From a virus, in IMG/VR virus record IMGVR_UViG_3300035701_000039, positions 1 through 55,692 of that record: DNA of 55,692 nucleotides, one strand, 5' to 3'. Shown piece after piece: positions 6,724-28,376 of the stretch. The position numbers and the translations under genes were made by a program. Positions within the stretch are counted from its first letter, which is position 1, and every line of letters begins with the position of its first letter. The notes under the pieces were generated by a model. That model made no database searches, was not told the DNA's origin, and saw only the letters and a list, made by a program, of their open reading frames with translations.

Positions 6724-6730
6724 TGAGTAC

Positions 6731-6943: not shown

Positions 6944-6944
6944 T

Positions 6945-7037: not shown

Positions 7038-7050
7038 TTGGGGGGTTAAC

Positions 7051-9374: not shown

Positions 9375-9552
9375 AGAGAAGGAATTATTCCATAAGGAAG
9401 AAGTCCCGGAATCAATGATTGATCCGTGGGAGAAACCGACTCTTATCGTTAAAAGAAGGGATAGTTATGAACTCCATTTCAAGAACAGAGTGGAATTTAT
9501 GACTTTAACGGGCAAGTATTTAGGCTGGAGTGAAGTTGAAGTTGTTGAGTGA
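9364..9552 (+). CDS. Small hypothetical protein
   Basis: 62 residues from the ATG at 9364, overlapping the previous gene by 11 nt. Acidic, with a predicted beta-rich end (SYELHFKNRVEFMTL). Not recognised. Confidence 0.5.
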   Translation: MPSKEKELFHKEEVPESMIDPWEKPTLIVKRRDSYELHFKNRVEFMTLTGKYLGWSEVEVVE

Positions 9553-10060
9553 CAAACAGATTTTGGACCTAATAGCATCTGGGGACATTAAGATAGAACC
9601 ATTCGATAGGAAAAGACTGGGGCCAGTAAGTTACGACCTGACCACTGAAAGCATAGAACCGGGTTTCAGAGGGGTCTATAAACTAGTTTCAAAAGAGCGA
9701 ATTAGACTGTCGAATAAGGTCGTGGGGTTAGTATGCATGAGGTCTAGGACAACCCTTCAGGGCTGGTTCGGTTCCTTTAGCGCTTTAGTCGATCCCGGTT
9801 ATTGTGGTAACTTGATTTTTCTAGTCTATAAACCTGCTCTTATCGCCGTTTCTTCGATCGGGGAAATGAACGATATGTTTCAGATTATGTTCTTCAAGGT
9901 CGGGGATGTGGAGCAGGCTTATAACGAGAGGGAGTTGAGCACGGCCATGAATAGGAAAGGTTGGTCTCCGTGGTTGAGAGAAGCCGTAGACACTTTACCT
10001 CCAGATGAAGAGAAGGAATCAGGTCTTGAAACAGAGGTCCAAGAGAATCCTGTCATATAG
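9530..10060 (+). CDS. dUTPase / dCTP deaminase family protein, dUTPase-like
   Basis: 176 residues from GTG; TTG codons at 9536 and 9542 are alternatives. The opening LLSDKQILDLIASGDIKI and LGPVSYDL are typical of the family. MRSRTTLQGWFG and ALVDPGYCGNL supply the conserved active-site motifs. The Glu that is catalytic in dCTP deaminases (in G-x-I-x-L-E-F) is Leu here (GNLIFLVY), as in plain dUTPases. The likely reaction is dUTP to dUMP plus pyrophosphate. The C-terminus is Glu-rich. Confidence 0.8.
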   Translation: MKLKLLSDKQILDLIASGDIKIEPFDRKRLGPVSYDLTTESIEPGFRGVYKLVSKERIRLSNKVVGLVCMRSRTTLQGWFGSFSALVDPGYCGNLIFLVYKPALIAVSSIGEMNDMFQIMFFKVGDVEQAYNERELSTAMNRKGWSPWLREAVDTLPPDEEKESGLETEVQENPVI

Positions 10061-11968: not shown

Positions 11969-12853
11969 GTGATTAATGTGCCTCCTATTCGTTATAGTGA
12001 AGAGGAAAGAGCGAAGCAGCACGCAGAAATTTTATGGCCGACAGTCCGGATACACACAGAGAAGGCTTGGGGATCAGGGACCATCGTCTATTCTGAAGTG
12101 AACGCTAAAGGGGAATTCGTCTCTTATGTTTTGACCTGCCATCACGTCATTGCCGACAATATCAAGATCGAGAAGAAATTCGATCATAGGGTCGGATATG
12201 ACATCAAGAAGGAGATTAGAATACCGGTAGAGATAGAATTCTTCTATTACGAGAAAATGTCCAGATGTATGGGCATAGCTGGATCCTGCAAGGCTGATAT
12301 AGTCGCTTATGACGAAGATGGTGACATTGCTCTCTTAGAATTCAAAAAGACGTCTAAGACCCAACCTGTAGCAACCTTATTCCCGAAGAATCGGGAAGAT
12401 GAAGTTCATGTCTTCGACGAGGTATGGGCCTGCGGTGCAGCATTAGCCCACGAACCTATAGCCACTAAGGGTATCATAAACTTCATGAATGAAATCCTCG
12501 AGAATGGTGTCGAATACTGGATGAGCAGCGCCCAGATCATTTTCGGCAATTCCGGAGGATCCCTATTCAGGTATAGCGAGGAAAGAGACAAGTATGAATT
12601 CCTAGGCATGCCTGCCCGTATAAGCATCTCCATGTCCGGCTTCAGTGCTGATCCTATAACCCACATGGGGTTCTTTGTCCCCATAACTAGAATCTATGAA
12701 TTCTTGGACAACCATTTCTTCCAGTACATATACGACAAGAACGAGACGTTTGAGACCTGCAAGAAGAAGATGGAAGACTTCAAGAAGGAACAAGAGAAGC
12801 TATTACTAGCCAAATTCGGCGGTTCTCCAGAGCAGGACAAGAGGGAGAAATAG
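11969..12853 (+). CDS. Trypsin-like serine protease
   Basis: 294 residues from a leaderless GTG. The triad is visible: His59 (LTCHHVIA), Asp119 (DGDIALLEF) and Ser195 (FGNSGGSLF, with the oxyanion Gly193). WGSGTIV is the usual first strand. The C-terminus is a charged coiled segment (KKKMEDFKKEQEKLL) that may tether it. There is no signal peptide, so it acts in the cytoplasm or the capsid. A separate S78 prohead protease exists at 25452, so this is a second, chymotrypsin-fold protease between TerL and portal. It may mature another virion protein or degrade a host factor. Confidence 0.85.
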   Translation: MINVPPIRYSEEERAKQHAEILWPTVRIHTEKAWGSGTIVYSEVNAKGEFVSYVLTCHHVIADNIKIEKKFDHRVGYDIKKEIRIPVEIEFFYYEKMSRCMGIAGSCKADIVAYDEDGDIALLEFKKTSKTQPVATLFPKNREDEVHVFDEVWACGAALAHEPIATKGIINFMNEILENGVEYWMSSAQIIFGNSGGSLFRYSEERDKYEFLGMPARISISMSGFSADPITHMGFFVPITRIYEFLDNHFFQYIYDKNETFETCKKKMEDFKKEQEKLLLAKFGGSPEQDKREK

Positions 12854-13075: not shown

Positions 13076-15622
13076 ATGCCAAGAGCAAAAATAGCGAAGA
13101 ACCAGCCGAAGATACCCTCTTTTTCTAGGAGGGAGAAGGCATTAGCGGTTCTAGGAAGATTAGTCGGCGTAAAGCTGGAGAAGACTACTCCAGTCCAACC
13201 AACTTTTGTCTTTGAACCAGAACCTCAGATCAGATACCCTGTTTATGATTACATCAATCTATTTGAGGTAGCCACTACTTCATGGCCGCTCAGACGGGCA
13301 TTCCGGGCGATCATTCAGGAATGCATAAGGAACCGTTGGACGATCAAACCGGCCTTTAAGTGGAAGTGTGACAAATGTGGCAAGACGTATGACCACACCC
13401 CGAATGAGAATCAGTTGAAGGAAGGGGAAAAACCGAAGTGCGAGGCTAATGGGTGTGGTGCTGAATTAAGACAACCATCCGAAGATCAGGCTAGGATTCT
13501 AGAACGTCTTCTTAAGAGACCGAATGGGGACTACCATTTCGATGACTTTGTTAAGTCATCTATATTCTACGACTTGTCCTTAGACGACTGGTACTGGGGC
13601 ATGTCCTTCAAGCGGGTTCCTAAGACTGAAGGCGGCAAGGTAGTCGTTCAGGAGAAGAAGGTAGTCTACGAGAAGGTCCCTAAAGAAATATTCGTTGAGG
13701 ATGCAAGGTTCATCTTCCCAGTAGCAGACGAATTCGGACACCTAGGCGGTTACGAATGGTTCTGTTCAGAATGTTATGATAAACAGCCCGGGGATCAGCC
13801 GGTAGTTGCTATCAGACAAGACATGAGTCTAGCAGATCGACAAAAGGCTATAATCTGTCCTCTCTGTGGGGAAGTAATGGAACAGACGGCCTACGTTCAG
13901 GAAATAGGCGGGATGGTGACGGCAAGGTTCACCAAGAACGAACTTATTCATGGGTCCAGTTCCAGAGTAGCACCTGCCCTCTTTGGGAATTCTAAGATCG
14001 TAAGCGTATGGAAGCTAGTTCAAACGGTCTTAGCCATGGACGATTATAATTGGGAAGTCTACAGCACCGGAAAGGTTGGAAGCATCATTGGCTTTCCGGG
14101 AGAGGACCAGTTAGAAGTCGACGAGAAGAAGAAGGCCATAGAAGAGGAAATCAAGGCCCTTGACGCTAAAGACATTCAGAGTGGAAGGTACAAGTCTTCT
14201 AAGAAGATAAGGACCCTAATGCTCGGTCTCAAGAAGGACCAGCAACCGATCAGGATTCCTATCATGGAAGACATGAAGGCGATGCAGTCGATCGAATTCT
14301 ACAGGCTCTACATGGAAGCAATTGCCGGAATATATGGGGTTACACCTGAATTCGTGAGCACAACGGACGTGGCCGGAGGAGGGATAAAACTCAAGATTGA
14401 TGTTCAGAACAGGACGACTCAGGAGCATCAGGCTGGATTTGCGGATCTATTTAACGACGACCTACTCCCCAAGTTCGGGATAACCGACTGGTTGTTCATC
14501 TTCAATCCGATAGAGGGAAGGGACCAATTAAGGGACTCTCAGACCGAACACACTAAGGCTGCTACCGCCATGACTTGGGCTCAGGCTGGGTTCAATGTAA
14601 GTCTAGGACCCGGAAGAGAATTGATCGTCACTGGAAAAGCGAACATACCTAGGGTTCAAGAACCTTCTAGGGCGGGTGAAGCACCTCGTTTCATGGAAGG
14701 CAAACCTGAATTCTGGCAGGGAGGAGAACCCACTAGGACAGGCGGCGAACGACTAGAATTGGGTGAGAAACCCACGGTTGAAGGGATGGGTGAGGGTGAA
14801 GTCCGTCTACCCATTTCTTGGTATTCAGCTTCTCAGATACGGATATGGGACCGGGTCTATGCTCTCAACAATGACAAAGATGAAGTCTATGTCGTGGTTA
14901 ACAATCATGAAGTGCAAGGGACTAGAACTTCGGCTACTAATCTTAACTACGCTGTAGCTTACCTTCTCGATAACGTTCTGGAATACATTAGCTCAAAACT
15001 AGCTGGAAAAGTGGGATTTAACGAAGATGACTTTAAGTCCGGGCAAAAGAAGATCGTGACTGGCTTTCGAAGGAAATTTGAGCCAGAACTTTTGATAAAC
15101 CTAGCTAGTTACTTAGATTCAATCGGCATGGAAGCCCTTGGTGAAAAGATTGATAGTCTGAGGATGAGACTAGAACAGATCAAGCCCAAGAAACTAGAGA
15201 TTCAGGGAGAACCGAGTACGGAAACGGCGTCTGGAGAAATGTTGGAACCGATATTTGAACAGAAGTCTATTCTTCAGGCTCGTGCTCCTTTCGGGGTTTC
15301 ATGGCAGGAGGAAACATTGTTCAAAGCTTTCAAGTCGATAATCAAATGGGCGCAGGATGAGGTTAAGAAGGGGAAGAACAAGGAAAAGGTGACGCACGAG
15401 GCCCTAATCAAGGCTCAACATACTTTGGACTCATCCTATGAGGAACTGGTTAAGCGGGCAATTGAGCATGCCAAGAAGAGGACGAAGAAGATCGTAAATC
15501 TTTCGCCCGATGAATTGAGAAGGATCAACGCCTATAAAGAAAACAGTCTCAACGATTTTGATAGGATCCTAAGAGATTCTCTAAAGGAGACGAAGAAGAA
15601 TGACGGAGAAAACATTGAGTAA
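13076..15622 (+). CDS. Portal protein with zinc-knuckle insertions and a long C-terminal extension
   Basis: 848 residues, far above the usual 400-550. The portal core starts at about residue 55 (YDYINLFEVATTSWPLRRAF) and includes the helical stem and clip region, with TPEFVSTTD at about 422. Two four-Cys inserts interrupt the wing: CDKC with CEANGC (about 100-123), and CSEC with CPLC (about 222-263). After about residue 560 comes an unassigned region with an SWYSASQIRIWD segment and a charged helical end. Position after TerL and before the MuF-like gene supports the call. The extension could hold the N-terminal half of a MuF-type protein. Confidence 0.85.
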   Translation: MPRAKIAKNQPKIPSFSRREKALAVLGRLVGVKLEKTTPVQPTFVFEPEPQIRYPVYDYINLFEVATTSWPLRRAFRAIIQECIRNRWTIKPAFKWKCDKCGKTYDHTPNENQLKEGEKPKCEANGCGAELRQPSEDQARILERLLKRPNGDYHFDDFVKSSIFYDLSLDDWYWGMSFKRVPKTEGGKVVVQEKKVVYEKVPKEIFVEDARFIFPVADEFGHLGGYEWFCSECYDKQPGDQPVVAIRQDMSLADRQKAIICPLCGEVMEQTAYVQEIGGMVTARFTKNELIHGSSSRVAPALFGNSKIVSVWKLVQTVLAMDDYNWEVYSTGKVGSIIGFPGEDQLEVDEKKKAIEEEIKALDAKDIQSGRYKSSKKIRTLMLGLKKDQQPIRIPIMEDMKAMQSIEFYRLYMEAIAGIYGVTPEFVSTTDVAGGGIKLKIDVQNRTTQEHQAGFADLFNDDLLPKFGITDWLFIFNPIEGRDQLRDSQTEHTKAATAMTWAQAGFNVSLGPGRELIVTGKANIPRVQEPSRAGEAPRFMEGKPEFWQGGEPTRTGGERLELGEKPTVEGMGEGEVRLPISWYSASQIRIWDRVYALNNDKDEVYVVVNNHEVQGTRTSATNLNYAVAYLLDNVLEYISSKLAGKVGFNEDDFKSGQKKIVTGFRRKFEPELLINLASYLDSIGMEALGEKIDSLRMRLEQIKPKKLEIQGEPSTETASGEMLEPIFEQKSILQARAPFGVSWQEETLFKAFKSIIKWAQDEVKKGKNKEKVTHEALIKAQHTLDSSYEELVKRAIEHAKKRTKKIVNLSPDELRRINAYKENSLNDFDRILRDSLKETKKNDGENIE

Positions 15623-16508: not shown

Positions 16509-18527
16509 TTGGGCTGGTTGTCCGGTTGGGGTAGAAAACGTGTCAAACTTACAATAGATGCCGATGACATTGACGCCGACTTAACAGATTTTCCTATTCT
16601 AGTCTACATATCAGCAAGTTCTGGAATCAATGCCGAGGATATGAGTTGTGTCTTTGATGAATTAATTTCGGATGCTAACAGGAAGAAGATAGCGGTTACA
16701 ACAGGCGATGGCGTAACTGAGTGCAAAGTTGAAATAGAGAAATGGGATGACGCTAATGAAAAGGCTTGGTTGTGGGTTAAAGTTCCCACAATAGACGATG
16801 CAAATAACACGGATCTGTACCTTTATTATGATCGCAATCATGCCGACAATGATGCTAATGTCGGTGATCCAGAATCAACTCCTGCCATGGCTGTTTGGGA
16901 TACTAATTTCTTGTTAGTTCAACACATGGAAGATACTGTCCTTGGTGAAGTTTGGGTTAGGCAGGGCAACTGTATAGGTCCAATCGCCGATCAATGGATC
17001 CTCGAATCTTCGGTTATATATGATATTGATCCCCAAATTCTTACTGGAGAAACGAATGTTTTTAAGATGTGGTACCTGAACGAGAATGCTGGAAGTTATG
17101 GTATTTATTATGCCGAATCTACAGATGGACTGTCTTGGACACTCTATAGCAGCAATCCTGTTTTAGCGAGCATACGCAGGGTTTCCATATTTAAAGATGG
17201 TTCAACATTTTATCTATACGGCAGTCCTGATGACGTAAATATTAAACGTTATCACAGTTCTGACGGTTTAAGCTGGACTGATGATGGAATAGTTCTTAGT
17301 CCGAGTGGCAGTGGGTGGGACAGTGTAAGATGCGTTAATTCTTTCGTTTGGAAAGAATCAGCTAATGACTGGAGAATGCTGTACGAAGCGGAAGGAAGTT
17401 TTTGGCAAATTGGTTATGCTACATCCACCGACGGTTTGTCTTGGTCTAAAAGTGGGAGCAACCCAGTAATTCCTGCTCCTAGTGGTGGAGTTCGTGGTGG
17501 TCCATTCGTACAGAAAATAGGTTCCACTTACTGGTGTTGGTGTCATGGTTCAACTGGTGGATTTCTACCAACGGACATTTATCGTTACTATAGCACTAAT
17601 TTAACATCTTGGACGCAAAGTCCTTCTGGAATTGATTTCGCTCGGACTGATTCAGATGAGGGTCCGAGTAGTGGTGCTGGACAAGTCGCGGATCCAAGCT
17701 TGTTAGAAATGGGCGGCAATGTCTACATGTGGTACACGGCCTGTATAACTCAAAACAGCGGAGACATGCACATTAAACTAGCAAAGGCGACTGGGACTTT
17801 TGCTCAAATTATTCTTGCTCCAATAATTTTAGATTCCACAACTAACAACTTGGACGGTACAAAGAAAGACGGTACTCACCCCGCCGTAAACACTAATAGC
17901 AAAATAGCTCATGGTCAGACTCAAGCTTCTGCGGATTACATTGACTTTGGAACTTCAGCAATTTTAAAACCTACTAGTGTCACTGTAGAAGCGTGGGTGA
18001 AAAGTTCTGCCGATACCGGATATATTTTTTGCAAATCATGCGACAATAAGGGTGGACATGTGGCTTATGGTGTGAATTGGGGCGTTTACGCCGCTGGAAA
18101 AATATGGGTCCGCATACAAAAAACTAATGGCGGTTTAAGCCCAACATTTTTAGATTTGAGCGTAACCGTGGCAACAATGAATGATGGCAACTGGCATCAT
18201 GTGACTTTTACTTATGGCGGAGTTGGTACTCCTATAAATCTCTATTATGATGGAGTATTAATAGGCACATCGGCGAATGGAGTAGCTCTTCTTTACGTGT
18301 CAGATATGAATGCTGGAACAGCAGAATATGATATTGTTGGGTGGGAAATTCCATTCGTAGGGGTTTTAGATGAGTTAAGGATTTCTGGTACCGCAAGAGC
18401 GGCTGGTTGGGTTAAGGCGACCTATGAAACCGGAAGGGATCATTTGTTGGTTTGGGGAACGGAAGAATTATTGCCAAGAGGGGCAGGTTCAATTATTCCC
18501 TTTATGGAGGAGATGATCCTTGGCTGA
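16509..18527 (+). CDS. DUF2341 / LamG lectin-like protein with an inserted five-blade beta-propeller
   Basis: 672 residues from TTG. Residues 1-115 match DUF2341 (RVKLTIDADDIDADLTDFPI). A concanavalin-like LamG domain begins at WDTNFLLVQHMEDT (about 130-143) and resumes at ILDSTTNNLDGT (about 440), ending VGVLDELRISGTARA. Between them lies about 290 residues of GH43/GH32-like propeller repeats (STDGLSW three times, DPSLLEMGGNVYMWY). In ordinary DUF2341-LamG proteins the two LamG pieces are adjacent. Composition is more AT-rich than the flanking genes, suggesting transfer. Likely glycan binding, possibly glycan cleavage, at the virion surface. Confidence 0.75.
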   Translation: MGWLSGWGRKRVKLTIDADDIDADLTDFPILVYISASSGINAEDMSCVFDELISDANRKKIAVTTGDGVTECKVEIEKWDDANEKAWLWVKVPTIDDANNTDLYLYYDRNHADNDANVGDPESTPAMAVWDTNFLLVQHMEDTVLGEVWVRQGNCIGPIADQWILESSVIYDIDPQILTGETNVFKMWYLNENAGSYGIYYAESTDGLSWTLYSSNPVLASIRRVSIFKDGSTFYLYGSPDDVNIKRYHSSDGLSWTDDGIVLSPSGSGWDSVRCVNSFVWKESANDWRMLYEAEGSFWQIGYATSTDGLSWSKSGSNPVIPAPSGGVRGGPFVQKIGSTYWCWCHGSTGGFLPTDIYRYYSTNLTSWTQSPSGIDFARTDSDEGPSSGAGQVADPSLLEMGGNVYMWYTACITQNSGDMHIKLAKATGTFAQIILAPIILDSTTNNLDGTKKDGTHPAVNTNSKIAHGQTQASADYIDFGTSAILKPTSVTVEAWVKSSADTGYIFCKSCDNKGGHVAYGVNWGVYAAGKIWVRIQKTNGGLSPTFLDLSVTVATMNDGNWHHVTFTYGGVGTPINLYYDGVLIGTSANGVALLYVSDMNAGTAEYDIVGWEIPFVGVLDELRISGTARAAGWVKATYETGRDHLLVWGTEELLPRGAGSIIPFMEEMILG

Positions 18528-18807
18528 AGAAGGAAGCTTCTGGACGAGCGATGAAGGCATACTTCTCCGTTTAGAAGATCTAGCCGGGGACTTCACCTTT
18601 AAGACTTACAATGGGGCGCTGCTGGGGAATTTCAAAGAGGCAGGGTTCGAGAAGCTCGTTTGGGTAGGAGTGGAGGATGACAAGATCTGTGAGGATTGCC
18701 TAGACCACGTCGGACGGGTTTGGAGGTCCTATGGGTTTCTACCTAAGATGCCGAGGCATGTTGGCTGTCGTTGCTGTTGGGATGTAGAAATTTCATTGGA
18801 GGATTGA
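18520..18807 (+). CDS. Short MuF-like head protein (C-terminal MuF core only)
   Basis: 95 residues from TTG with GGAGG upstream. The end, D-D-K-I-C-E-D-C then MPRHVGCRCCWD, is the Cys/His signature of the Mu gpF head-morphogenesis domain (D-x-x-x-C-x-x-C ... P-x-H-x-x-C-R-C). Typical MuF proteins are 250 residues or more, so the N-terminal part is missing or is supplied by the portal extension. A homing-endonuclease remnant follows directly. Confidence 0.7.
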   Translation: MAEEGSFWTSDEGILLRLEDLAGDFTFKTYNGALLGNFKEAGFEKLVWVGVEDDKICEDCLDHVGRVWRSYGFLPKMPRHVGCRCCWDVEISLED

Positions 18808-19273: not shown

Positions 19274-19687
19274 ATGAGGTTGGATCCGAATAGCGTGATT
19301 AAGCGGCCTAGATTTTTGACTTCAACTCGAAGACCCGGGTATGATATAGACTTTCATCCTCGCGCTTTTGACAAACCTCTCGCATGTCGGGTTGGAAGAC
19401 ATCCTACTCTAAGAAGGATCATTGGTCCCGGTGGCATACCCCATCTCTATTGCCCCAAATGTGGTTCAAGCATTGGGGAAGGTCTGCATACCGGAACGTG
19501 GAGCAAAGACGACATAGACCGTTTGACGAAGATCAAGCAGGGATTATATTCGGCTCAGAAACCTAGGACGAAGAAAGAGATAATGAATGAGGCTTGGGAG
19601 AAGCACCAAGCATCGGCGGGTCAACGTAAGGAACGAATGGAAGCTTCGATTGAGAGGTTTGTAAAAGAGCGAATGCTCGATGAATGA
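19274..19687 (+). CDS. Hypothetical protein with zinc ribbon half-site
   Basis: 137 residues. A Cys-x-x-x-x-His (ACRVGRH) and a CPKC about 20 residues later form a likely zinc site; the C-terminus is a basic helix. It overlaps the ligase gene by 8 nt, so a functional link with it is possible. Confidence 0.5.
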   Translation: MRLDPNSVIKRPRFLTSTRRPGYDIDFHPRAFDKPLACRVGRHPTLRRIIGPGGIPHLYCPKCGSSIGEGLHTGTWSKDDIDRLTKIKQGLYSAQKPRTKKEIMNEAWEKHQASAGQRKERMEASIERFVKERMLDE

Positions 19688-21455
19688 CTTTTCTTCTAAG
19701 CCTATTAAGTTTCTTTATTTTGAAATAGCTAGGCTTAGGACCCTCTACGATTCTAAACCAGAAATACGTGAGGCTATAATAGAACGGTATGGGCAGGTAG
19801 TGAAGGAACTTGATGGTAGAGGAGCCAAATGGTTCTGGGCACCTCATCTAATAGACCAATTCATTGACATCAAGAAGGCCTTTATTAAACCCAACAAGCC
19901 GGCATGGAGGATCTTTACTCCAGAAGAAGTCTTTGACATTTCCGGATTTGAACTTCCTGTTCTGGTTGACGTCAAGATAGATGGGATGAGGCTTCAGATC
20001 CATAATGATGCTGGGGTACAAATCTATTCTGAAGATGAGGGCCTGAACAAGACTCATAAATTCAAGGAACCTCTAGAGGACATTAAGAAACTGCCGGAAG
20101 GAACGATCCTAGACGCCGAAGGGGTTCTAGTCGCTGATGGACAGGTTCTTCATAGGACTAGTTTCATTGGTTACGTTAACGGGAAGGGGTTTGACGAGGA
20201 GAAGGACAAGCAGACTGAATTTTGGGTCTTTGACGTCCTCAGATGGGGAAATAAGGATCTTACCGATGAGCCATTATCAGTCCGGTTATCCTACCTAAAG
20301 AAGGTTCCGGAATGCAAGCACCTGAAGGTGTTCAAGGCCGGGGAAGAAGCTTTCATCTGTAAGACTAGAGAAGAGGTTCTAACCGCGGTCAAGAAGGTTG
20401 CAGGGAAGAAAGGATCAGAAGGGGCAATGATTAAACTCCTTTCCAGCACATACGTCAAGGACATTCATAATAAAGGCTGGATAAAACTCAAGAACCTCAA
20501 GGAGGTAGACTGTCTAGTAGTTGAGATTGAACAACCCAAACACCAGAAGGGTCCTTTAGAAGGCAAACCGGTTGAGGGAGTATTCAACTATCATGTGGCT
20601 GCTGGTCCATACCCGGAAGCAGATGGTAAGGTTCTTCTAGACAAGGTTTCAACTAAAGTCCGAGAGTATGAGGGGAAAGTCTATGCTCACCTCGGTAAGA
20701 CCTTTAATACCGAGATCAAGGCGAAGGTTGGGGACATAATAAGGGTCTGGTCACCGGAAATAAACAGGTATGAGGTTAAGGATACGAAACTTTATACTTA
20801 TGGAATCTATGAACCCAAGGTTCTGGAATGGGTTCACGAGAGGAATATACCGGATAGTCTGAACGTCCTCAATCGTTTGGCGGAACAGACTTCAGAATTA
20901 CATCCAAGAGAAGTTAATAAGGCTGGGGATTGGTGTGTAGATGGCGGAGGAAATTGGATCACGATTTCCGGTACTCATGTCTGCGTGGGTATTAAAGATC
21001 AAATGGAATTTCAAGGGTCCAACCCTATTCAGGAGACTCGAGTTCGAGCAGCTTTATCTAGACTACCTTTGGGAGATCGTAAAGACTTCAAAAGGGTTTA
21101 TATCCGGGATAGGTTGAATCTATCCGGATATGACGCCACTTTTAAGAGGGATGTTGATGGTTCTTCTTCCATGTTCGTGGCGAAAGAGACTTTGGAAGGT
21201 GAGGACTGGAACAATTTTTCTAATCACGTCATTTCTCACGAAGTAGGTCATAATGTATTCGTTAGAAATCTGACCGAAGATCAGTCTTCGGATTGGAGAA
21301 CTTTCTTCTATGACGCAAAAGATAGTTTTCCGTCCGAGCATTCGCAAATAAATCCGGATGAAGGGTTCGCTGAGGCCTATAGCAGATATCAAACTGGTTT
21401 GCCACTCGATCCCAAAATAAAGGATAAGATTGAGGGACTCGGGATAAAGAGATGA
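19680..21455 (+). CDS. ATP-dependent DNA ligase fused to a zinc metallopeptidase
   Basis: 591 residues. Ligase: motif I V-K-I-D-G-M-R with Lys99 as adenylation site, motif III ILDAEGV, motif IV EGAMIKL, motif V GWIKLKN, then an OB-fold-like part to about residue 400. A linker GGNWITISGTHVCVG (about 422-436) leads to a gluzincin-like domain: HEVGH (His520, Glu521, His524) and DEGFAEAY (Glu565 as third ligand). The next gene repeats the linker plus peptidase without the ligase. The overlap chain with neighbours is 8 and 4 nt. Ligase-peptidase fusion is unusual. I infer that the peptidase part is a phage head-type domain and that the ligase was joined to it, perhaps for virion loading and release. 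Confidence 0.85.
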   Translation: MNDFSSKPIKFLYFEIARLRTLYDSKPEIREAIIERYGQVVKELDGRGAKWFWAPHLIDQFIDIKKAFIKPNKPAWRIFTPEEVFDISGFELPVLVDVKIDGMRLQIHNDAGVQIYSEDEGLNKTHKFKEPLEDIKKLPEGTILDAEGVLVADGQVLHRTSFIGYVNGKGFDEEKDKQTEFWVFDVLRWGNKDLTDEPLSVRLSYLKKVPECKHLKVFKAGEEAFICKTREEVLTAVKKVAGKKGSEGAMIKLLSSTYVKDIHNKGWIKLKNLKEVDCLVVEIEQPKHQKGPLEGKPVEGVFNYHVAAGPYPEADGKVLLDKVSTKVREYEGKVYAHLGKTFNTEIKAKVGDIIRVWSPEINRYEVKDTKLYTYGIYEPKVLEWVHERNIPDSLNVLNRLAEQTSELHPREVNKAGDWCVDGGGNWITISGTHVCVGIKDQMEFQGSNPIQETRVRAALSRLPLGDRKDFKRVYIRDRLNLSGYDATFKRDVDGSSSMFVAKETLEGEDWNNFSNHVISHEVGHNVFVRNLTEDQSSDWRTFFYDAKDSFPSEHSQINPDEGFAEAYSRYQTGLPLDPKIKDKIEGLGIKR

Positions 21456-22228
21456 AGAAGAAGATTTACTTAGATTCAAAATTCAACTCAGTTCCTAAAT
21501 CTGGGGCCAAATATGAGGTTGAATTAACCATAGAAGATGAACAGACAGTCGAGGAAAAATGGAAAATTCTGACTGAAAAGGACCGGGTCGCTAAGCAGGA
21601 TGAAGGCGGGGATGGAGGACATTGGGTCACGGTTAACGGACGACACATCTTCATCGGGGATGAGGAGCAGGGGAATTGGGAAGTCAATTATGAGAAGGTG
21701 TCTGGTTCAAGGCAGAAAGTCGGAGAGAAGACTTACCTTTACAATCAGGATTCAGATGCCTTTCCCGAAGAAGAAAAGAAGAAGATCAGTTCAGCCCTTT
21801 TACTAGAGGACAACAAGATTAAGAATAGATTTTCTTCTGTCCTCTTAACCAAAGGGAAGGACTATTTTGGAATGAATTGGAGGGAATTTGACGGTGAGAA
21901 ATGGGCTAACACCTTGGAAATTTCTAATTCGTCTCCTGAAGCCGTAATGACGATGGAGCATGAGTTCGGGCACGAATACACCAATTACGCCCGGGAAGAA
22001 GGATTGAATGAAGAATTCGAAACGGACTTTAAGAAGGCACGAAAAACTGACGGTTTAGATACAAGCGCATTTTCTCTTACCCCGGAACAGTCCAAGAAAG
22101 ATATAGATGAAGACATCGCTAATGCCTACGCCGCCTACGTCGTGGATCCAAAAGCCCTTAAAGAGGCCAGCCCCAATCGTTACGAAGCCATTAGGGGTCT
22201 GGTTGAGAAGGTGAGGGGTAAACCATGA
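21452..22228 (+). CDS. Zinc metallopeptidase-like head protein, paralogue of the ligase C-terminus
   Basis: 258 residues. GGHWVTVNGRHIFIG (about 54-68) matches the linker in the ligase fusion. HEFGHEY (His170, Glu171, His174) is the zinc helix. DEDIANAYAAYVVDP, some 40 residues later, may hold the third ligand. Overlaps neighbours by 4 nt on both sides. It may cleave a head or scaffold protein, or the fusion upstream. Confidence 0.7.
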   Translation: MKKKIYLDSKFNSVPKSGAKYEVELTIEDEQTVEEKWKILTEKDRVAKQDEGGDGGHWVTVNGRHIFIGDEEQGNWEVNYEKVSGSRQKVGEKTYLYNQDSDAFPEEEKKKISSALLLEDNKIKNRFSSVLLTKGKDYFGMNWREFDGEKWANTLEISNSSPEAVMTMEHEFGHEYTNYAREEGLNEEFETDFKKARKTDGLDTSAFSLTPEQSKKDIDEDIANAYAAYVVDPKALKEASPNRYEAIRGLVEKVRGKP

Positions 22229-23634
22229 AGATAGAGAGGATCACCGAAGAAAAGATTGAGACGATCATGGTCTCAGATGAGAATTTCAATTTAGTCATTT
22301 ATGCCTCACCCGGGAAAATGAAGGACGAGGATATTGAGGGGATCATTGAGGATTATCGGCGAAGGAAAGAAACCAAAGGATTTTCTAAGGTTGAGAAGAA
22401 AGAATCTGATTCCATGTATCTACCTCGTCATTCTTGCATGCTCATCTGGTCCGGGGTCAAGACACTGATAGTGAAGGAGAAACACTTTGAAGGCATGCTC
22501 AAGAAGAAAATGAACCTCTGCGATGACAATTACAAATATGGGGACATCATTCTCACTCGGATGTTTGAGATGTCTAGGGAAGAAGTCGACAGGAGTAGGA
22601 AGAGGAGCAGGTTAACGGATCTGGACATGGAGGACTGGAAGGGAGCTAAAATCTTCTACGGGTATGACTTTGAATTCGAACCTTTAGAGGAACCGCAAGA
22701 GGTTAAGGTTCCACATGGCGCCCAAACCTTCTTTAATATCGAGAAGGCTGAAGGTCCTACCTTACCTGAATACGAGGGACTGGCTAAACCGGGTGAACCG
22801 TTACCAGACAAATATTACAAGTTCCATTCTAATGTCAAGGATCCTAAGTTCGTACTTCAGAGGCATTATCCGACTGGGAAGAAGGTGCCGATAAAACCGG
22901 GTGAAGAAGAACCTCAGATGTATAAGAGCTTCGTAGTCGAGTATGATGAGAAACACCCTGAGGCTTTGACCGGTCTAATGTCTGATCTGATAGACCAATA
23001 CGAGGAACTAGACGAGAAGGAACGGGTCAAGATCGAGAAGAGTACGTTTGGGGTCCTCTTCGAGGGTTTAGTGGTTAAGATCCGAGACCATTTGGATCTG
23101 AGGATGGAGATAAGCGATTCTAAATTAGTAGGTGTCACCATTCACCCACCGGTCCCGGGAGGAATAACGGCTTGGGACGCCTTTAAATCTCGCATGACTG
23201 GCGAAGAAAAGACTCAGGTCACGCCTAAGTACGAACACCCTCATCCTTGGCTGACTAGGGAAGGAGAATTAAGATTTCCAACGAGGCACAAGGAACCTCA
23301 AGAGGCCCATTACCTAGAAGTCGCTAGGATGGACATCATAGACACTGGACCGGTTAAGTTCGGGGTTCAGAGGGAAGACCTGCATGAATTCTTCTTCTAT
23401 GGGAAGATTTTAAAAGGCCGATGGGTGATAAGGAAGCTGAAGATAGGAACAGAAGCAGCTCATTGGGCTTGGTTGCTAATGAAACCATCCGACCAGAGAC
23501 CATTAGACCCTGTTCTGCATCGGGATAATGGGCACATTAAGATAGAACGAGTAGCTGAGCCAACGACAGAAGAACGTTCCCATATAGAAGAAGAGACTCA
23601 AGCGGCTAGGGCGGAAAGAGGACAGGAAATTTAG
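22225..23634 (+). CDS. ASCH-like plus LigD-type 3'-phosphoesterase-like protein
   Basis: 469 residues. The first 170 residues (GVKTLIVKEKHF, LTDLDMEDWKGAKIFYGY, VPHGAQTFF) resemble ASCH/PUA-like folds. The second part has FVLQRHYPTG (His214), then H-L-D-L-R-M-E (His289, Asp291) and VGVTI. It ends with LHEFFFYGKILKGRW and AWLLMKPSDQRP. These are the order and signatures of the LigD 3'-phosphoesterase fold (Q-x-H, H-x-D-x-R-x-E, L-K-G-R-W, W-L-x-x-K), with a large insert between the first two. That fold removes 3'-phosphates or ribonucleotides from DNA ends. Direct linkage to the ligase fits DNA end repair. Confidence 0.6.
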   Translation: MKIERITEEKIETIMVSDENFNLVIYASPGKMKDEDIEGIIEDYRRRKETKGFSKVEKKESDSMYLPRHSCMLIWSGVKTLIVKEKHFEGMLKKKMNLCDDNYKYGDIILTRMFEMSREEVDRSRKRSRLTDLDMEDWKGAKIFYGYDFEFEPLEEPQEVKVPHGAQTFFNIEKAEGPTLPEYEGLAKPGEPLPDKYYKFHSNVKDPKFVLQRHYPTGKKVPIKPGEEEPQMYKSFVVEYDEKHPEALTGLMSDLIDQYEELDEKERVKIEKSTFGVLFEGLVVKIRDHLDLRMEISDSKLVGVTIHPPVPGGITAWDAFKSRMTGEEKTQVTPKYEHPHPWLTREGELRFPTRHKEPQEAHYLEVARMDIIDTGPVKFGVQREDLHEFFFYGKILKGRWVIRKLKIGTEAAHWAWLLMKPSDQRPLDPVLHRDNGHIKIERVAEPTTEERSHIEEETQAARAERGQEI

Positions 23635-23975
23635 GCTCTTATACCGTCGAAGGTTATTGTCAGGGCTATTTGAATCTTGAATTCTAACTGTAATAATTCC
23701 CTAATCCCTTCAGACGTTATGAAGTACTGATGTCGGAAACGATCTGGCTTCGTACGACCTAAACCCGGTCTGGTTCTAAGCCAAGGCAATTTTTCTAAAC
23801 TTGAGGATATGAAATTCTTCTTCTTCAATTCGGCTATGAGAGAATAGAAATGGCCTAAGGGGAAGTCGAATTGAAGGGCGGACATCTTCTTCCTGATCTG
23901 GTAACGAGTGATGTAAGGATGGTCCTTGAGCACCTTGAGGATTATGCATTTTTCTAGGATATACTTGTCTCTCAT
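23631..23975 (-). CDS. Winged-helix protein (minus strand)
   Basis: 114 residues. The helix-turn-helix region YITRYQIRKKM and a wing ending in YFITSEGIRELL are typical of PadR-like or archaeal winged-helix regulators. It overlaps the stop of the plus-strand phosphoesterase gene by 4 nt and the nuclease gene upstream by 4 nt. It is the last gene of the minus-strand island. Confidence 0.65.
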   Translation of the reverse strand: MRDKYILEKCIILKVLKDHPYITRYQIRKKMSALQFDFPLGHFYSLIAELKKKNFISSSLEKLPWLRTRPGLGRTKPDRFRHQYFITSEGIRELLQLEFKIQIALTITFDGIRA

Positions 23976-25063
23976 ACGTGGTACTTCTCGGGGTGAATGA
24001 ATAGGTTTATTATATGGGGTAAATGACTTAGGTCCTTAAAGTTATTGGAATTGAGACGGAGGATCCTGATGCCGAATGAACCAATGTACCTATCCCGTTC
24101 AGCGTCTCTCTCCTTCTGTCCCGGAATAGCAGTATGAAATATACCATCTACCTCAATTAGGAGCATTCGATCGAAGTCAAAGAAGTCCAGATGGTAGAAG
24201 GAACCCCTAGATTTAGATTTAAGCAAAGTGGACAATAAGGTGGCAATTCGCGCACAGAAGTTGAATAATGGACAATAATTCTTTCTGTGGTAATTTATAA
24301 ATTTCAAGCCATGATTCTCCCGTTTGACGTCCAAATCTATGATGGAAGACAAGAACTCTTGGATCTGTCGTCCCACATATTGAACATTCGCCGCCGAGAG
24401 TCTGGATAAGTTTAAGACGCATTTTCCTTTTAAATCTTCTTTCATTTTCTTGTTGTTTCGGAAGAATTTTTCTCTTATTCTTGGAGTAATATTCTCGTTT
24501 GTACTGTTTAAGCTTTTCTTTATTCTTGAGTCGCCATTTATGCTGCTGTTCTCGGTATTTATCCGGATACTTTGCCCGCCAACGATAGACAGCCGCCTTC
24601 CAGACTTCAGGGTGTTTCTGGTAATGTCTTCTATTTGCTTCACTTGCGGGCATGAATCGTTTCTCTCCGAACAACTCCTTAGATAGAGTAAAGTTAATTG
24701 GGTTATATAATCTTTACTAATTTTTGATGGGAATGGACAATTATGGATGAAATTGTTCTCCTCATTAAGGAGGACTAAAGCGGCGAAGGTGTATTCCTCT
24801 AGGGTGGACCAGCAGTTGATGTAATACCGTTTAGACACGTTCGAAGAATACTTGATGAAGGCCCGTTCCTTAGCTGAAGTCGGAGGCATTGGCCGCTTAA
24901 TCGCCTTCAAGAAGGCTCTGTAACCATTGAACCTGTGCATGATCATGTCATAGAGGAAAGGATCCTTCTTCTTGACCTTCTGGTATCTGGGCGAGTGATG
25001 TGGATCCGGGAATAGGGAAATGAAGATTTTCTTCAGTCTCTGTCTAGTCCAAGGATCATTCAT
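23972..25063 (-). CDS. Vsr/DUF559-like nuclease gene interrupted by an HNH gene
   Basis: The frame is open for 363 codons from the ATG at 25063 (a TTG at 25087 is possible). The last 80 codons encode LIEVDGIFHTA, then Arg-Asp, and GIRILRLNSNNF, as in DUF559/Vsr PD-(D/E)XK nucleases. About 150 codons in the middle are only a shadow of the HNH gene at 24219-24653 in another frame. Taking that block out joins FIHNCPFPSK to FYHLDFFDF, a natural nuclease core. The host frame stays open through the insert, so a longer product could still be made. The enzyme may be a homing-type nuclease. Confidence 0.6.
   Translation of the reverse strand: MNDPWTRQRLKKIFISLFPDPHHSPRYQKVKKKDPFLYDMIMHRFNGYRAFLKAIKRPMPPTSAKERAFIKYSSNVSKRYYINCWSTLEEYTFAALVLLNEENNFIHNCPFPSKISKDYITQLTLLYLRSCSERNDSCPQVKQIEDITRNTLKSGRRLSIVGGQSIRINTENSSINGDSRIKKSLNSTNENITPRIREKFFRNNKKMKEDLKGKCVLNLSRLSAANVQYVGRQIQEFLSSIIDLDVKRENHGLKFINYHRKNYCPLFNFCARIATLLSTLLKSKSRGSFYHLDFFDFDRMLLIEVDGIFHTAIPGQKERDAERDRYIGSFGIRILRLNSNNFKDLSHLPHIINLFIHPEKYHV
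24219..24653 (-). CDS. HNH homing endonuclease nested in the DUF559-like gene
   Basis: 144 residues from the ATG at 24653 (or 151 from a TTG at 24674). An N-terminal basic region with repeated W-R-x-K-x-P/N-K-x units is typical of phage HNH DNA-binding arms. It is followed by C-S-I-C-G, VFHHRFG and LCANCHLIVH, a zinc-bound HNH core. It has its own TATA box at 24703-24712. This is a mobile gene inserted in the nuclease gene, on the same strand but in another frame. Confidence 0.85.
   Translation of the reverse strand: MPASEANRRHYQKHPEVWKAAVYRWRAKYPDKYREQQHKWRLKNKEKLKQYKREYYSKNKRKILPKQQENERRFKRKMRLKLIQTLGGECSICGTTDPRVLVFHHRFGRQTGESWLEIYKLPQKELLSIIQLLCANCHLIVHFA
24703..24712 (-). promoter_or_regulatory. 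TATA box for the nested HNH gene
   Basis: On the minus strand ttatataacc lies about 30 nt upstream of the TTG at 24674, and AAGGAG follows close to the start. The element probably came with the HNH gene. Confidence 0.5.
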
Positions 25064-25226
25064 TTCTCTCTTTAAACTTCTTGACAAATTCCATCATGCC
25101 CTTAAAGATGTCTAACTTCTTTGTCAGGCCCAATAACTCTCCGATGTACCAGAAGTCTGAATACTCCTTCGTGGTCAGGTCTAGAAGAAGCTTCTTCCCC
25201 TTAGGTTTCTTATCATTAGGGTTCAA
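25056..25226 (-). CDS. Small hypothetical protein of the minus-strand island
   Basis: 56 residues from a TTG that overlaps the stop of the RHH gene, with GGAGGG upstream. Lys-rich, with one amphipathic helix (LGLTKKLDIFKGMMEFV). The longer frame upstream is a shadow of the RHH gene. Not recognised. Confidence 0.5.
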   Translation of the reverse strand: MNPNDKKPKGKKLLLDLTTKEYSDFWYIGELLGLTKKLDIFKGMMEFVKKFKERNE

Positions 25227-25359
25227 GTTTAGCTCCCTCCTTAACCTTCTTCTTGATGTAGTCACGAAAGGCCTCTTCTGCGGCATCATAAAGTTTAGTC
25301 TTAGCCACGCTCGAAGTAGACCTGAATTTCGTCCATAGGACATCATCCACTTCGACCAT
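25216..25359 (-). CDS. Ribbon-helix-helix-like regulator
   Basis: 47 residues. V-E-V-D-D-V-L-W-T-K-F (strand then helix A) followed by AAEEAFRDYIKKKV (helix B) is the RHH/CopG layout with the common D-x-x-L-W start. It is the first gene of the minus-strand operon and lies opposite the prohead protease promoter, so it may repress both. Confidence 0.6.
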   Translation of the reverse strand: MVEVDDVLWTKFRSTSSVAKTKLYDAAEEAFRDYIKKKVKEGAKLEP

Positions 25360-25422
25360 TACCTTTTTCCTAGTCAACTTAGACAACTCTTAATAGTATT
25401 AAAGCTCAGACTAGTTAATAAA

Positions 25423-25432
25423 CTTTTAAATT
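25423..25432 (+). promoter_or_regulatory. TATA box of the prohead protease gene
   Basis: cttttaaatt is centred about 25 nt before the ATG at 25452, so the mRNA is probably leaderless. The 92-bp divergent region 25360-25451 must also hold the minus-strand promoter (a TTTAATA-like box near 25396-25402). Confidence 0.5.
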
Positions 25433-25451
25433 TTGATGATAGGGTATATTA

Positions 25452-26720
25452 ATGTTCGGACAGTCTATGTATTCGTACAACACAGGGAGTACAATGTCAG
25501 AACTAAATGGATGTCCAGACACCCTTCTCAATTCTGAGTTGGAAATATACAAACATCCATTGGTTCAATCCCTGTTAGATGCCCTTCCCCAACCTCTTAC
25601 TCGCACTCCTTGGTCATTCACTTTTCCCATTTCTAAGAAGATGGAAGAAGAAGGAAAAATCATTATCGCTGGTTATGCTTCCGTAGAGGTCATTGACAGC
25701 CAGAACGAACTTATACCCATACCGGTTCTAAAGGAGGCTTGGGTAAAGTTCAAGGCTAATAAGTATTTTGCTACTGGGTCACTCATGCATTCTAACATTC
25801 CTGTCATTAGGATCCTAGACGAGTACAAAGATTCTAAGGGTCAGGTCTGGAAGAGTGAAGTCGACGACACCGGTCTCTTTATCGTGGCCGAAGTCAGGAA
25901 CGATATCGAGAAGGGGTTGCAGACGATTGAACTTATCAAGGATAATAAACTTACCGGGTTCAGTATAGGAGGGGAAGCCCTAGCTTCTTCTATCATCTGT
26001 GAAGGGAAATGCTACACTAGGATAGACAAGATGGAATTACACGAAATAGCGGTTGTGGACCGTCCGGCAAATCAACCTTCCGTCTTTACCATAGTCAAGT
26101 CGGATAGGTTGAGAAAATTGGCGGAATTGACTGAAGCCCTTCCTGATCTAATCATCAGTCCGGGAGTAGCCAAGGTCGCAGGTTCAGTAGCCGAATTAGG
26201 AGAAGGTCACGATTTCGACCTGATCATAACCGCTTCTGAAGGTTCATTTGTTGACCGGGCAATTCAAACCCGGATTTTTAATGAGCTGAGAAGAAAAGGG
26301 AAAGAAGACCTTTGGAAGAGTCTACATGTCATTCACGAACCGGAAGGTCTAGGACCCTTTACCGATCACTATGACCTGTTCGATCTTGTCCTGTTAAGGT
26401 CTACTCCCCATAAAAGGGACATGACCTACACCGGAGGGGAAAAGACTAAGAACTCCCTCAAGGACAAACTCGTAGAGGAATTCAAACTTAATCCGGGTCA
26501 AGCTGGTTTATTGATCAACTGGCTTGGCGATGCCGCTAAGAAATTAGTGGCTGTTGGGACAAAGAAGGAAAAATTCGAGTGTCCCATTCTAGTCTCAGTA
26601 GAGAAACTAGATGAGGCAATAGACAAGGCCAATTCAAGTAGGATAATGAGAAAATCCATATCTCATCTTGATGAGGCAATTTCAAAGTTATCTCTTAACC
26701 GAGAAACTATAACCTCGTAA
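25452..26720 (+). CDS. Prohead protease (S78/XkdF type) fused to a nucleotidyltransferase-like domain
   Basis: 422 residues. Protease: GYASVEVIDSQNEL (74-87), His113 (GSLMHSN), Ser171 (LTGFSIGGE) and HEIAVVDRPANQP. It digests scaffold and capsid precursor tails. Residues about 220-320 do not belong to the protease. GSVAELGEGHDFDL (244-257) has the G-S plus D-x-D (Asp254, Asp256) of Pol-beta-type nucleotidyltransferases. It is followed by a GLGPFTDHYDLFDLVLL strand. The C-terminal 100 residues are charged helices and run into the scaffold gene. The DxD-bearing domain next to ligase and phosphoesterase genes is notable. Confidence 0.85.
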   Translation: MFGQSMYSYNTGSTMSELNGCPDTLLNSELEIYKHPLVQSLLDALPQPLTRTPWSFTFPISKKMEEEGKIIIAGYASVEVIDSQNELIPIPVLKEAWVKFKANKYFATGSLMHSNIPVIRILDEYKDSKGQVWKSEVDDTGLFIVAEVRNDIEKGLQTIELIKDNKLTGFSIGGEALASSIICEGKCYTRIDKMELHEIAVVDRPANQPSVFTIVKSDRLRKLAELTEALPDLIISPGVAKVAGSVAELGEGHDFDLIITASEGSFVDRAIQTRIFNELRRKGKEDLWKSLHVIHEPEGLGPFTDHYDLFDLVLLRSTPHKRDMTYTGGEKTKNSLKDKLVEEFKLNPGQAGLLINWLGDAAKKLVAVGTKKEKFECPILVSVEKLDEAIDKANSSRIMRKSISHLDEAISKLSLNRETITS

Positions 26721-27272: not shown

Positions 27273-28376
27273 ATGCCAGAAACAATGGAAGAATTCCTAG
27301 CCAAGTTCTACGGTCCTAGAAAGAGACTGTTGAAGACCGCAACCCAAATATCGGATGCGGCAGTCGCTGCTGGGTCTAGAACGATCTGGGAACCAATCTT
27401 TGGCGCTAAGGTCTGGTCATGGCTGAATCTGGAAGCTAACGTATTCGCTATTCTGCCGAAGGAACCATGGGGCAAGTCAGGCTGGCGCATACTAACCGCT
27501 CGAGCTCACGAATCGGGTGGAGGCATAGCTGAAGGCGCAGAGGGTGGAGCAATTCCAGCGTCTGTGACTCTCACCTTTGCTGAGGTATTGGCCGCGCCTA
27601 AACTGGTCAGCCACACCTTCGACATAACGGAACTAGCGGAATTTCTAAGCTCAGCCGACGACGCAATAGACCTGTTCCCGATTTACCGAGAGGAAATTGG
27701 GAAGGAACACGCCTCCTGCATCAACAAAATGCTGGTTGGGGATGCTAACACTGTGGCCGGGAATAACTTCGAATCTTTGGACCGTGTTATAGCGGCTAAA
27801 TCCGAAATAACCGGTGGAAGATACGGAGCTAACGATCTAGACATTTATGGTCTAGACCGAGACAGTCCGACGACCTACGATGCTTACGTAAGTCACAACA
27901 GCGGCACAGACAGGGACCTAAGTCTGTCTCTCATTGATACCGTACTTCAAAATGTATGGGATAATGGAGGCTTACCTAAGGTCATTCTGACCAAGACCGA
28001 CAGCATGATGCGATGGCAGCAACTCCTCGAAGCCGAAAGACGATTCATGGACACCGCTAGGGTAGTCCCTACCTACGGCGGCGTGCGTGGACCGGCTCCG
28101 GGTGTAGAGGCAGGATTCCTAGTCGCAACCTACTTTGGCATACCCATCATACCGAGCATAGACATTCCAGTGGATGACACTATAGGTCCAATATTCTTCA
28201 TCGACACCGATTTTCTCAAGTTCGCGGTTGCTCAACCGACGACCTACGTGGAATCGGGCAAGGGTGAAGGATTCATCTATAGGGGATACTTCAAGACTCA
28301 GGGTCTGTACAAGACAAGGGGCGAGCTTAGGGCATACCGGTTCAACGTTCACGGCAAGCTAGTAGACCTGAAGTAG
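27273..28376 (+). CDS. HK97-fold major capsid protein
   Basis: 367 residues, 2 nt after the scaffold gene. N-terminal helix (MPETMEEFLAKFYGPRKRL), then ISDAAVAAGSRTIWEPIFG, an E-loop-like region, a GKEHASCINKMLVGD spine helix region, a P-domain, and an A-domain with GIPIIPSIDIPVDD. Gene order (protease, scaffold, capsid) and size fit. Confidence 0.85.
   Translation: MPETMEEFLAKFYGPRKRLLKTATQISDAAVAAGSRTIWEPIFGAKVWSWLNLEANVFAILPKEPWGKSGWRILTARAHESGGGIAEGAEGGAIPASVTLTFAEVLAAPKLVSHTFDITELAEFLSSADDAIDLFPIYREEIGKEHASCINKMLVGDANTVAGNNFESLDRVIAAKSEITGGRYGANDLDIYGLDRDSPTTYDAYVSHNSGTDRDLSLSLIDTVLQNVWDNGGLPKVILTKTDSMMRWQQLLEAERRFMDTARVVPTYGGVRGPAPGVEAGFLVATYFGIPIIPSIDIPVDDTIGPIFFIDTDFLKFAVAQPTTYVESGKGEGFIYRGYFKTQGLYKTRGELRAYRFNVHGKLVDLK

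What the first reader, a model, noticed from the sequence alone, without database searches (positions are those of the whole stretch)
19680..26720. LigD-like DNA-end repair set embedded in the head-assembly locus
Between portal/MuF and capsid genes there are, in order, an ATP-dependent DNA ligase, a LigD-type 3'-phosphoesterase-like protein, and a prohead protease carrying a nucleotidyltransferase-like domain with D-x-D. Bacterial LigD combines ligase, phosphoesterase and polymerase activities. Here these activities are split and joined to virion genes and peptidase domains. I infer they may be packaged and injected, repairing nicks or ends of the entering genome or helping it circularise. A minus-strand island interrupts the set.
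Basis: partly seen in the sequence, partly recalled or inferred. Interest (0 to 1): 0.85.

Follow-up and report, generated by a model that had tools for sequence, protein, structure and literature searches.

The report
LigD-like repair enzymes in virus head locus
Tailed viruses of archaea keep a DNA-end repair kit (a ligase, a LigD-type 3'-end cleaner and a probable nucleotidyltransferase) inside the gene block that builds the virus head, sometimes fused to the head-assembly protease, which suggests the kit travels in the particle and mends the viral DNA on entry.

Summary
Between portal/MuF and the capsid protein lie an intact ATP-dependent DNA ligase (PF01068, E 5e-22), a zincin, an ASCH + LigD-type 3'-phosphoesterase (PE) protein, and an S78 prohead protease with a nucleotidyltransferase-like (NTase) tail. 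The PE is well supported: Foldseek of its model returns LigD-PE structures first (best E 1e-5), profile-profile comparison with cellular LigD-PE gives E 2.5e-8 (reversed control 0.8), and the key catalytic residues are kept. The NTase is probable, not proven. The linkage is no accident: it recurs in at least five divergent groups of archaeal tailed viruses. Ligase and PE are one protein in L004, L017 and L024; NTase-ligase-PE is one protein in ANMV-1, whose record annotates only the ligase; a Methanothrix contig carries ligase-PE-protease-NTase as a polyprotein. No Ku and no LigD-type polymerase were found, so it works like LigD but is not a full LigD. Cargo domains (zincin, GNAT, methyltransferases, ATP-grasp, metallo-beta-lactamase) are swapped around the core, several behind a short W[IV]TxxGxH linker, as in polyvalent injected proteins. 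Packaging and injection remain inference, strengthened by the fusions to the prohead protease.

The parts
13076..15622 (+). portal protein gene (upstream boundary of the head locus)
   Evidence: PF04860 E 7.5e-5
18520..18807 (+). MuF-like minor head protein, short
   Evidence: PF04233 E 0.0036; PHROG minor head protein 5e-5
19274..19687 (+). conserved small protein with CxxC immediately upstream of the ligase gene in relatives
   Evidence: 47-96% identity in L002, L003, L004, L010
19680..21455 (+). ATP-dependent DNA ligase fused to a C-terminal zincin-like module
   Evidence: PF01068 4.9e-22; only ligase in the record
19680..19904 (+). N-terminal anchor (res 1-75), kept in L010 where the ligase itself is gone
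   Evidence: alignment score 168 against shuffle maximum 46
19959..20492 (+). ligase adenylation domain; K99-x-D-G at 19974-19985, GSEGAMIK 20412-20435, GWIKLKN 20475-20495
20943..20990 (+). linker motif GGGNWITISGTHVCVG before zincin-like module
21237..21377 (+). zincin motif HEVGH and downstream EGFAEA
   Evidence: the homologous module in L023 matches PF07737 (ATLF) at 1.7e-5, below its cut-off
21452..22228 (+). second linker + zincin-like protein (linker 21614-21661, HEFGH 21959-21973); start overlaps ligase stop
22225..23634 (+). ASCH + LigD-type 3'-phosphoesterase protein
   Evidence: Foldseek: LigD PE 3p43/3p4h/3n9b/5dmp, ZmASCH 5y6c/5guq
22405..22734 (+). ASCH domain (about res 60-170)
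   Evidence: same domain in L003, L017, L024, L025
22753..23520 (+). PE domain; Q212-x-H214, H289-x-D291-x-R293, H338; about 70-residue insertion between H214 and H289
   Evidence: hhalign to cellular LigD-PE E 2.5e-8; residues per PMC8656161
23631..25346 (-). minus-strand island: PadR-like wHTH, DUF559 nuclease-like gene, small gene
   Evidence: counterparts in L002, L003, L004 and a DUF559-like gene in L007
25452..26720 (+). S78 prohead protease with C-terminal NTase-like domain
   Evidence: PF04586 2.2e-9
26109..26414 (+). NTase-like domain: VAGSVAELGEGHDFDLI 26175-26225 (D254, D256) and third Asp in GPFTDHYDLFDLVL 26352-26393 (D311)
   Evidence: probable only
27273..28376 (+). major capsid protein (downstream boundary)
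   Evidence: PF17236 9.9e-8

Best explanation
This is a LigD-like DNA-end healing and sealing module built into the head-assembly locus of a tailed archaeal virus. Shown by sequence and structure comparison: an intact nick-sealing ligase, a LigD-family 3'-phosphoesterase that should turn 3'-phosphate or 3'-ribonucleotide ends into ligatable 3'-OH ends, and (probable) a pol-beta-type NTase, conserved together between portal and capsid genes in divergent archaeal viruses. Inferred: because the NTase, and in other viruses the ligase and PE too, are translated as one chain with the prohead protease and scaffold-like region, they are enclosed in the procapsid, cut free (by the prohead protease and/or the zincin-like modules), kept with the DNA, and enter the cell with it. 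There they clean and seal nicks and ends, including those left by packaging, environmental damage or host nucleases, before the virus has made any protein. The other modules found at this place (GNAT, methyltransferases, ATP-grasp, MBL, ASCH) would be further cargo loaded the same way.
For: PE: Foldseek, six LigD-PE entries among the ten best matches; profile-profile E 2.5e-8 and 8.6e-14, reversed controls negative; the viral PE profile over 394 archaeal genomes recovers cellular LigD PEs, including ligase-PE and larger LigD-type proteins; PF13298 7.9e-7 in L060 and 3.9e-4 in L056, both under the curated cut-off; TIGR02777 0.0039 in L017. Ligase. Conserved fusions: ligase-PE in one ORF in L004 and L017, ASCH-MTase-ligase-PE in L024 and MBL-ASCH-ligase-PE in L025, NTase-ligase-PE in ANMV-1 directly after the portal and in L056, ASCH-D12 MTase-MBL-NTase-ligase in L060 followed by PE, S78 protease and a capsid-like ORF, ligase-PE-DUF2213 protease-NTase in L039 behind portal and MuF, ASCH-PE-protease-like in L044/L058. 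One ligase per virus record wherever there is one, and it is this one. In three rhizobial phages the nearest solo ligases sit outside any annotated head locus.
Against: No proteomics or biochemistry. Prohead proteases can destroy themselves and leave before packaging, so fusion does not prove retention. The ligase is the only one in each virus record and could serve replication instead. L009 and L010 lack ligase and PE, so the module is not essential in every relative. NTase fold support is weak.
Confidence: 0.58

Rival explanations
1. Packaging-side repair: the enzymes act at or inside the procapsid on the concatemer, sealing nicks so the motor does not stall and finishing ends, and are not delivered to the next cell.
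For: Genes sit between portal, MuF and protease in divergent groups; fusions to the protease place them in the procapsid before DNA enters.
Against: Accompanying cargo such as GNAT, MTases and ATP-grasp has no obvious packaging role and looks like injected polyvalent cargo.
Confidence: 0.2
2. An ordinary replication or recombination ligase and end-processing enzyme that merely happens to lie in the late operon.
For: It is the only ligase in the record and the virus has its own PolB, Rad51-like and ERCC4-domain proteins.
Against: Conserved placement and fusion with the prohead protease in divergent viruses; two relatives have no ligase at all; the conserved N-terminal anchor survives without the ligase.
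Confidence: 0.12
3. RNA repair: ligase, PE, NTase and ASCH mend tRNA or other RNA cut by host defence nucleases.
For: ASCH domains are RNA-linked (general knowledge, not tested here); LigD PE also acts on 3'-ribonucleotides (PMC8656161).
Against: The ligase domain scores best against NHEJ and other DNA ligase models, not RNA ligase models; no 2H or kinase partner seen.
Confidence: 0.07
4. A true Ku-independent NHEJ machine in which the NTase replaces the LigD polymerase and joins the virus's own ends to circularise it.
For: Three enzyme classes parallel to LigD, fused in the same protein in ANMV-1 and L056.
Against: No Ku in any of 18 records searched, no LigD_pol over cut-off; a minimal NTase is not known to fill gaps; genome ends unknown (only a 32-base end overlap in the window).
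Confidence: 0.12

Closest known systems
Bacterial/archaeal LigD (NHEJ ligase D) and stand-alone archaeal 3'-phosphoesterases (3p43, 3p4h, 5dmp)
   Same: ATP-dependent ligase + LigD_N-type PE in one protein (L004, L017) or as neighbours (window); Mn-site and most phosphate-site residues kept
   Different: No AEP polymerase domain, no Ku; an NTase-like domain instead; about 70-residue insertion in the PE; Tyr88 position is Trp; encoded in a virion locus and linked to prohead protease, zincin-like and ASCH domains
Polyvalent proteins of phages and conjugative elements (Iyer et al. 2017, PMC5512222)
   Same: Multi-domain chains with zincin, GNAT, MTase and NTase domains, encoded among virion genes, with swapped modules
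   Different: PMC5512222 reports a particular paucity in archaea; a text search of its main text found no DNA ligase among the described domains
ANMV-1 virus AJP62006.1 (Paul et al. 2015, KP703175)
   Same: NTase-ligase-PE directly after the portal gene
   Different: Record annotates only 'ATP-dependent DNA ligase'; NTase is on the ligase, not on the protease
Virion-packaged base-excision-repair set of African swine fever virus (PMC12172490)
   Same: Ligase and DNA polymerase X carried in the virion, proposed to repair the genome before replication
   Different: Unrelated virus, separate proteins, no LigD-type PE named there, no prohead protease fusion

Membership tests
LigD (DNA ligase D) | ATP-dependent ligase domain with KxDG lysine | tested here: met
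   PF01068 4.9e-22; K99-I-D-G
LigD (DNA ligase D) | 3'-phosphoesterase domain | tested here: met
   Foldseek and hhalign
LigD (DNA ligase D) | AEP Prim-Pol polymerase domain | tested here: not met
   TIGR02778: nothing over cut-off in 14 records
LigD (DNA ligase D) | Ku partner | tested here: not met
   PF02735: none in 18 records
LigD (DNA ligase D) | domains in one polypeptide | tested here: inconclusive
   split in the window, fused in L004, L017, L024, L025, ANMV-1, L056
LigD 3'-phosphoesterase superfamily | PE fold | tested here: met
   3p43 1.1e-5, 3p4h, 3n9b, 3n9d, 5dmp, 2lj6; model confidence moderate (pLDDT 63)
LigD 3'-phosphoesterase superfamily | His42, His48, Asp50 (Mn site), Arg52, His84, Tyr88 | tested here: met
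   H214, H289, D291, R293, H338; Trp342 in place of Tyr88
LigD 3'-phosphoesterase superfamily | 3'-phosphatase / 3'-ribonuclease activity | not testable with these tools
   needs protein
Pol-beta superfamily NTase (25452 product, res 220-320) | hG[GS] followed by DxD plus a third acidic residue | tested here: met
   G244-S245, D254, D256, D311; G and both D of DxD invariant in 10 members, third position mostly D or E
Pol-beta superfamily NTase (25452 product, res 220-320) | significant profile or fold match | tested here: inconclusive
   best Foldseek 6sxj 0.011; hhalign E 0.0028 for the family, 0.19 for the window group; ANMV-1 member PF01909 6.9e-4 per record, below cut-off
Polyvalent proteins | several effector domains in one chain, encoded with virion genes, zincin frequent | tested here: met
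Polyvalent proteins | delivered into the host with the DNA | not testable with these tools
   needs virion proteomics
NHEJ system | Ku plus end-joining ligase | tested here: not met

The most novel reading that the evidence does not exclude
Archaeal tailed viruses carry a virion-borne, Ku-independent analogue of LigD in which a pol-beta-type NTase takes the place of the AEP polymerase; it is made as part of the prohead protease/scaffold polyprotein, loaded into the head, and joins or repairs the ends of the incoming genome. A short W[IV]TxxGxH module marks interchangeable cargo behind a conserved anchor, a loading code for archaeal virion cargo.
Probability: 0.25. Interest if true: 0.9.

Novelty: new variant of a known kind. 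Interest (0 to 1): 0.74.

Why it matters
LigD-type end repair is known from cellular NHEJ; here the same enzyme pairing is assembled repeatedly with capsid-assembly genes in viruses of archaea, where polyvalent cargo was thought rare. It offers a testable case of DNA repair delivered by a virion, reannotates a published virus (ANMV-1), and gives fused proteins (L004, ANMV-1 type) that can be expressed and assayed directly.

Tried and rejected
PF13298 by HMMER on the window and eleven other records: no hit, so the PE needed profile-profile and structure. phmmer/hmmsearch against PDB with the PE and protease profiles: nothing significant (the top phmmer hit 3p43 at E 0.45 was only a lead), NTase profile none. 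P0003 against INPHARED: none. PE alignment in genome contigs: none. ANMV-1 and L039 proteins in viral contigs: no relatives. Linker 24-mers against INPHARED: none, a low-sensitivity test. Group I/II intron in the DUF559 insert: no Rfam match. Canonical NHEJ rejected as a label: no Ku, no LigD_pol over cut-off. Rhizobial phage ligases considered as the same arrangement and rejected from their neighbourhoods. Literature searches for a prior report of prohead protease + ligase + phosphoesterase found none in the held library, which lacks most subscription journals.
Full report
What is there. The window is a 55,692-base virus record whose first and last 32 bases are identical, so it is probably a complete or circularly assembled genome. 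It encodes a TopoVI-A/Spo11 Toprim-like protein, Rad51-like, ERCC4-domain, PolB and a weak TYW3-like protein, pointing to an archaeal host. The head locus runs portal, variable proteins, MuF-like, two small conserved proteins, ligase, zincin-like, ASCH-PE, a minus-strand island, S78 protease, an acidic protein, capsid protein. The ligase, zincin-like and ASCH-PE genes overlap by four bases each.

The ligase. PF01068 hits residues 94-271 with E 4.9e-22. The adenylation lysine motif K99-I-D-G, GSEGAMIK and GWIKLKN are present. It is the only PF01068 match in the record. Residues 1-75 are a conserved anchor that survives in L010, where ligase and PE are missing and an NTase-like domain follows a linker instead. 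Past residue 420 comes the linker GGGNWITISGTHVCVG and a zincin-like module with HEVGH.

The phosphoesterase. No library HMM hits the window protein. Its AlphaFold model (pLDDT 63), searched against the PDB, returns 3p43, 3p4h, 3n9b, 3n9d, 5dmp and 2lj6, all LigD 3'-phosphoesterases, and ZmASCH for the ASCH part. hhalign of the window-group PE against cellular LigD PEs gives E 2.5e-8; the wider viral set gives 8.6e-14; reversed and unrelated profiles give nothing. The cellular set was picked up by the viral profile itself in 394 genomes of one archaeal phylum, so the choice of partners is not fully independent; but its members show textbook LigD motifs, one is fused to a ligase and one lies in a larger LigD-type protein. 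The catalytic residues listed in PMC8656161, Gln40, His42, His48, Asp50, Arg52 and His84, correspond to Q212, H214, H289, D291, R293 and H338; Tyr88 is Trp342. An insertion of about 70 residues separates H214 and H289 in the window group but is short or absent in ANMV-1 and L039.

The NTase. Residues 220-320 of the protease carry GSVAELGEGHDFDLII and a later DLFDLVLL. Ten relatives in several fusion contexts share the glycines, the two aspartates and a GPFT-like stretch. ANMV-1's copy hits PF01909 at 6.9e-4 in its record, below the curated cut-off. Foldseek of the poor P0004 model (pLDDT 59) has several NTases among the best 50 but none better than E 0.011; hhalign is weak. I treat it as probable.

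The linkage in relatives. Near relatives L002, L003, L004, L007/L017 (one contig) and L023 keep the order as far as their contigs reach; L004 has ligase and PE in one 710-aa ORF, L017 ligase-ASCH-PE-PE in 985 aa. L024: ASCH-methyltransferase-ligase-PE after the portal, then a DUF559-like minus-strand gene, protease-NTase, capsid protein. The L025 group (ten loci): MBL-ASCH-ligase, PE, then NTase fused to the N-terminus of the protease. L028 and L030 have an ATP-grasp module after the ligase and L031 an ORF of the same length at the same place; L033 has an intein in the ligase. ANMV-1: NTase-ligase-PE directly after the portal, with a MuF-like C-terminus in the next gene. L056 (an archaeal genome contig): portal, then NTase-ligase-PE with LigD_N 3.9e-4. 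L060: portal, ASCH-D12 MTase-MBL-NTase-ligase, PE (LigD_N 7.9e-7) with a LAGLIDADG-bearing insertion, S78 protease, capsid-like ORF. L039 (Methanothrix MAG): portal, MuF, ligase, then one chain of ligase C-terminus, PE, DUF2213 protease, NTase and a scaffold-like tail, with an in-frame TAG in the ligase. L044/L058: ASCH-PE-protease-like in one chain near a weak capsid match. Chance does not give this.

Modularity. Close pairs show single modules coming or going: the L002 PE protein has a linker + GNAT segment of about 455 bases absent from the window gene, which is 93% identical elsewhere; L006 has a linker-bearing segment of about 415 bases absent from L008. The linker W[IV]TxxGxH[IV]x[IV] was found eight times as distinct sequences, seven ahead of a recognisable module (zincin-like, GNAT, NTase-like) and one (L006) ahead of an unidentified segment. 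Its function is unknown; a cleavage or loading signal is a guess.

Mechanism. Shown: the domains, their conservation and their fusions. Inferred: that being one chain with the prohead protease/scaffold places these enzymes inside the procapsid, that proteolysis frees them, and that they enter with the DNA. The precedents are polyvalent proteins (PMC5512222) and the repair enzymes packaged by African swine fever virus (PMC12172490). The likely work is removing blocked 3' ends and sealing nicks in incoming DNA; the NTase could fill or modify ends, or act on protein. Without Ku or a LigD polymerase this is LigD-like in work, not a member of the full LigD/NHEJ system.

Verdict. The most informative additions are the structural and profile support for the PE, the fused forms in relatives including a published virus, the recognition of zincin-like, ASCH and linker modules, and the failure of the Ku and polymerase tests.

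Noticed in passing
window 24213-24725 (-): A 513-base segment containing an HNH-like ORF (24219-24674) sits inside the DUF559 gene and is absent from the otherwise similar gene in L002; no Rfam intron match.
   Followed up: partly
window 23631-25346 (-); L002, L003, L004, L007, L024: A minus-strand island between the PE and protease genes (PadR-like wHTH + DUF559 in L002-L004; DUF559-like in L007 and L024) recurs in relatives; in L010 its place holds a Lon-like protease gene and others.
   Followed up: partly
L033:5576-9355; L060:2135-7078; L060:7036-10074: Intein in the ligase of L033 (PF14890 1.8e-11 + LAGLIDADG); weaker Hint/intein signals in the L060 ligase; a LAGLIDADG-bearing insertion in the L060 PE.
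   Followed up: no
L039:7491-7493: In-frame TAG within the ligase of the Methanothrix contig; mutation, assembly error or readthrough not resolved.
   Followed up: no
window 20943-20990, 21614-21661; L002 10196, L006 949, L003 9284, L023 7310 and 8838, L009 1016: Short recurrent linker W[IV]TxxGxH[IV]x[IV] ahead of swapped modules; no match in INPHARED by short tblastn.
   Followed up: partly
window 11969-12853; L003 660-1250: A trypsin-like protease gene (PF13365) lies upstream of the portal; in L003 that place holds what reads like a ClpP-type protease (the latter by eye only).
   Followed up: no
window 16509-18527: A large variable protein between portal and MuF genes, replaced by different proteins in L002, L003, L010 and L023; not annotated here.
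   Followed up: no
L037, L038: Related contigs are binned as a Thermoplasmata archaeon and a Planctomycetota bacterium from the same sampling, so one bin assignment is probably wrong.
   Followed up: no
window 5929-10057: Upstream region with methyltransferase, uracil-DNA glycosylase, thymidylate kinase-like, thymidylate synthase and dCTP deaminase-like genes.
   Followed up: no
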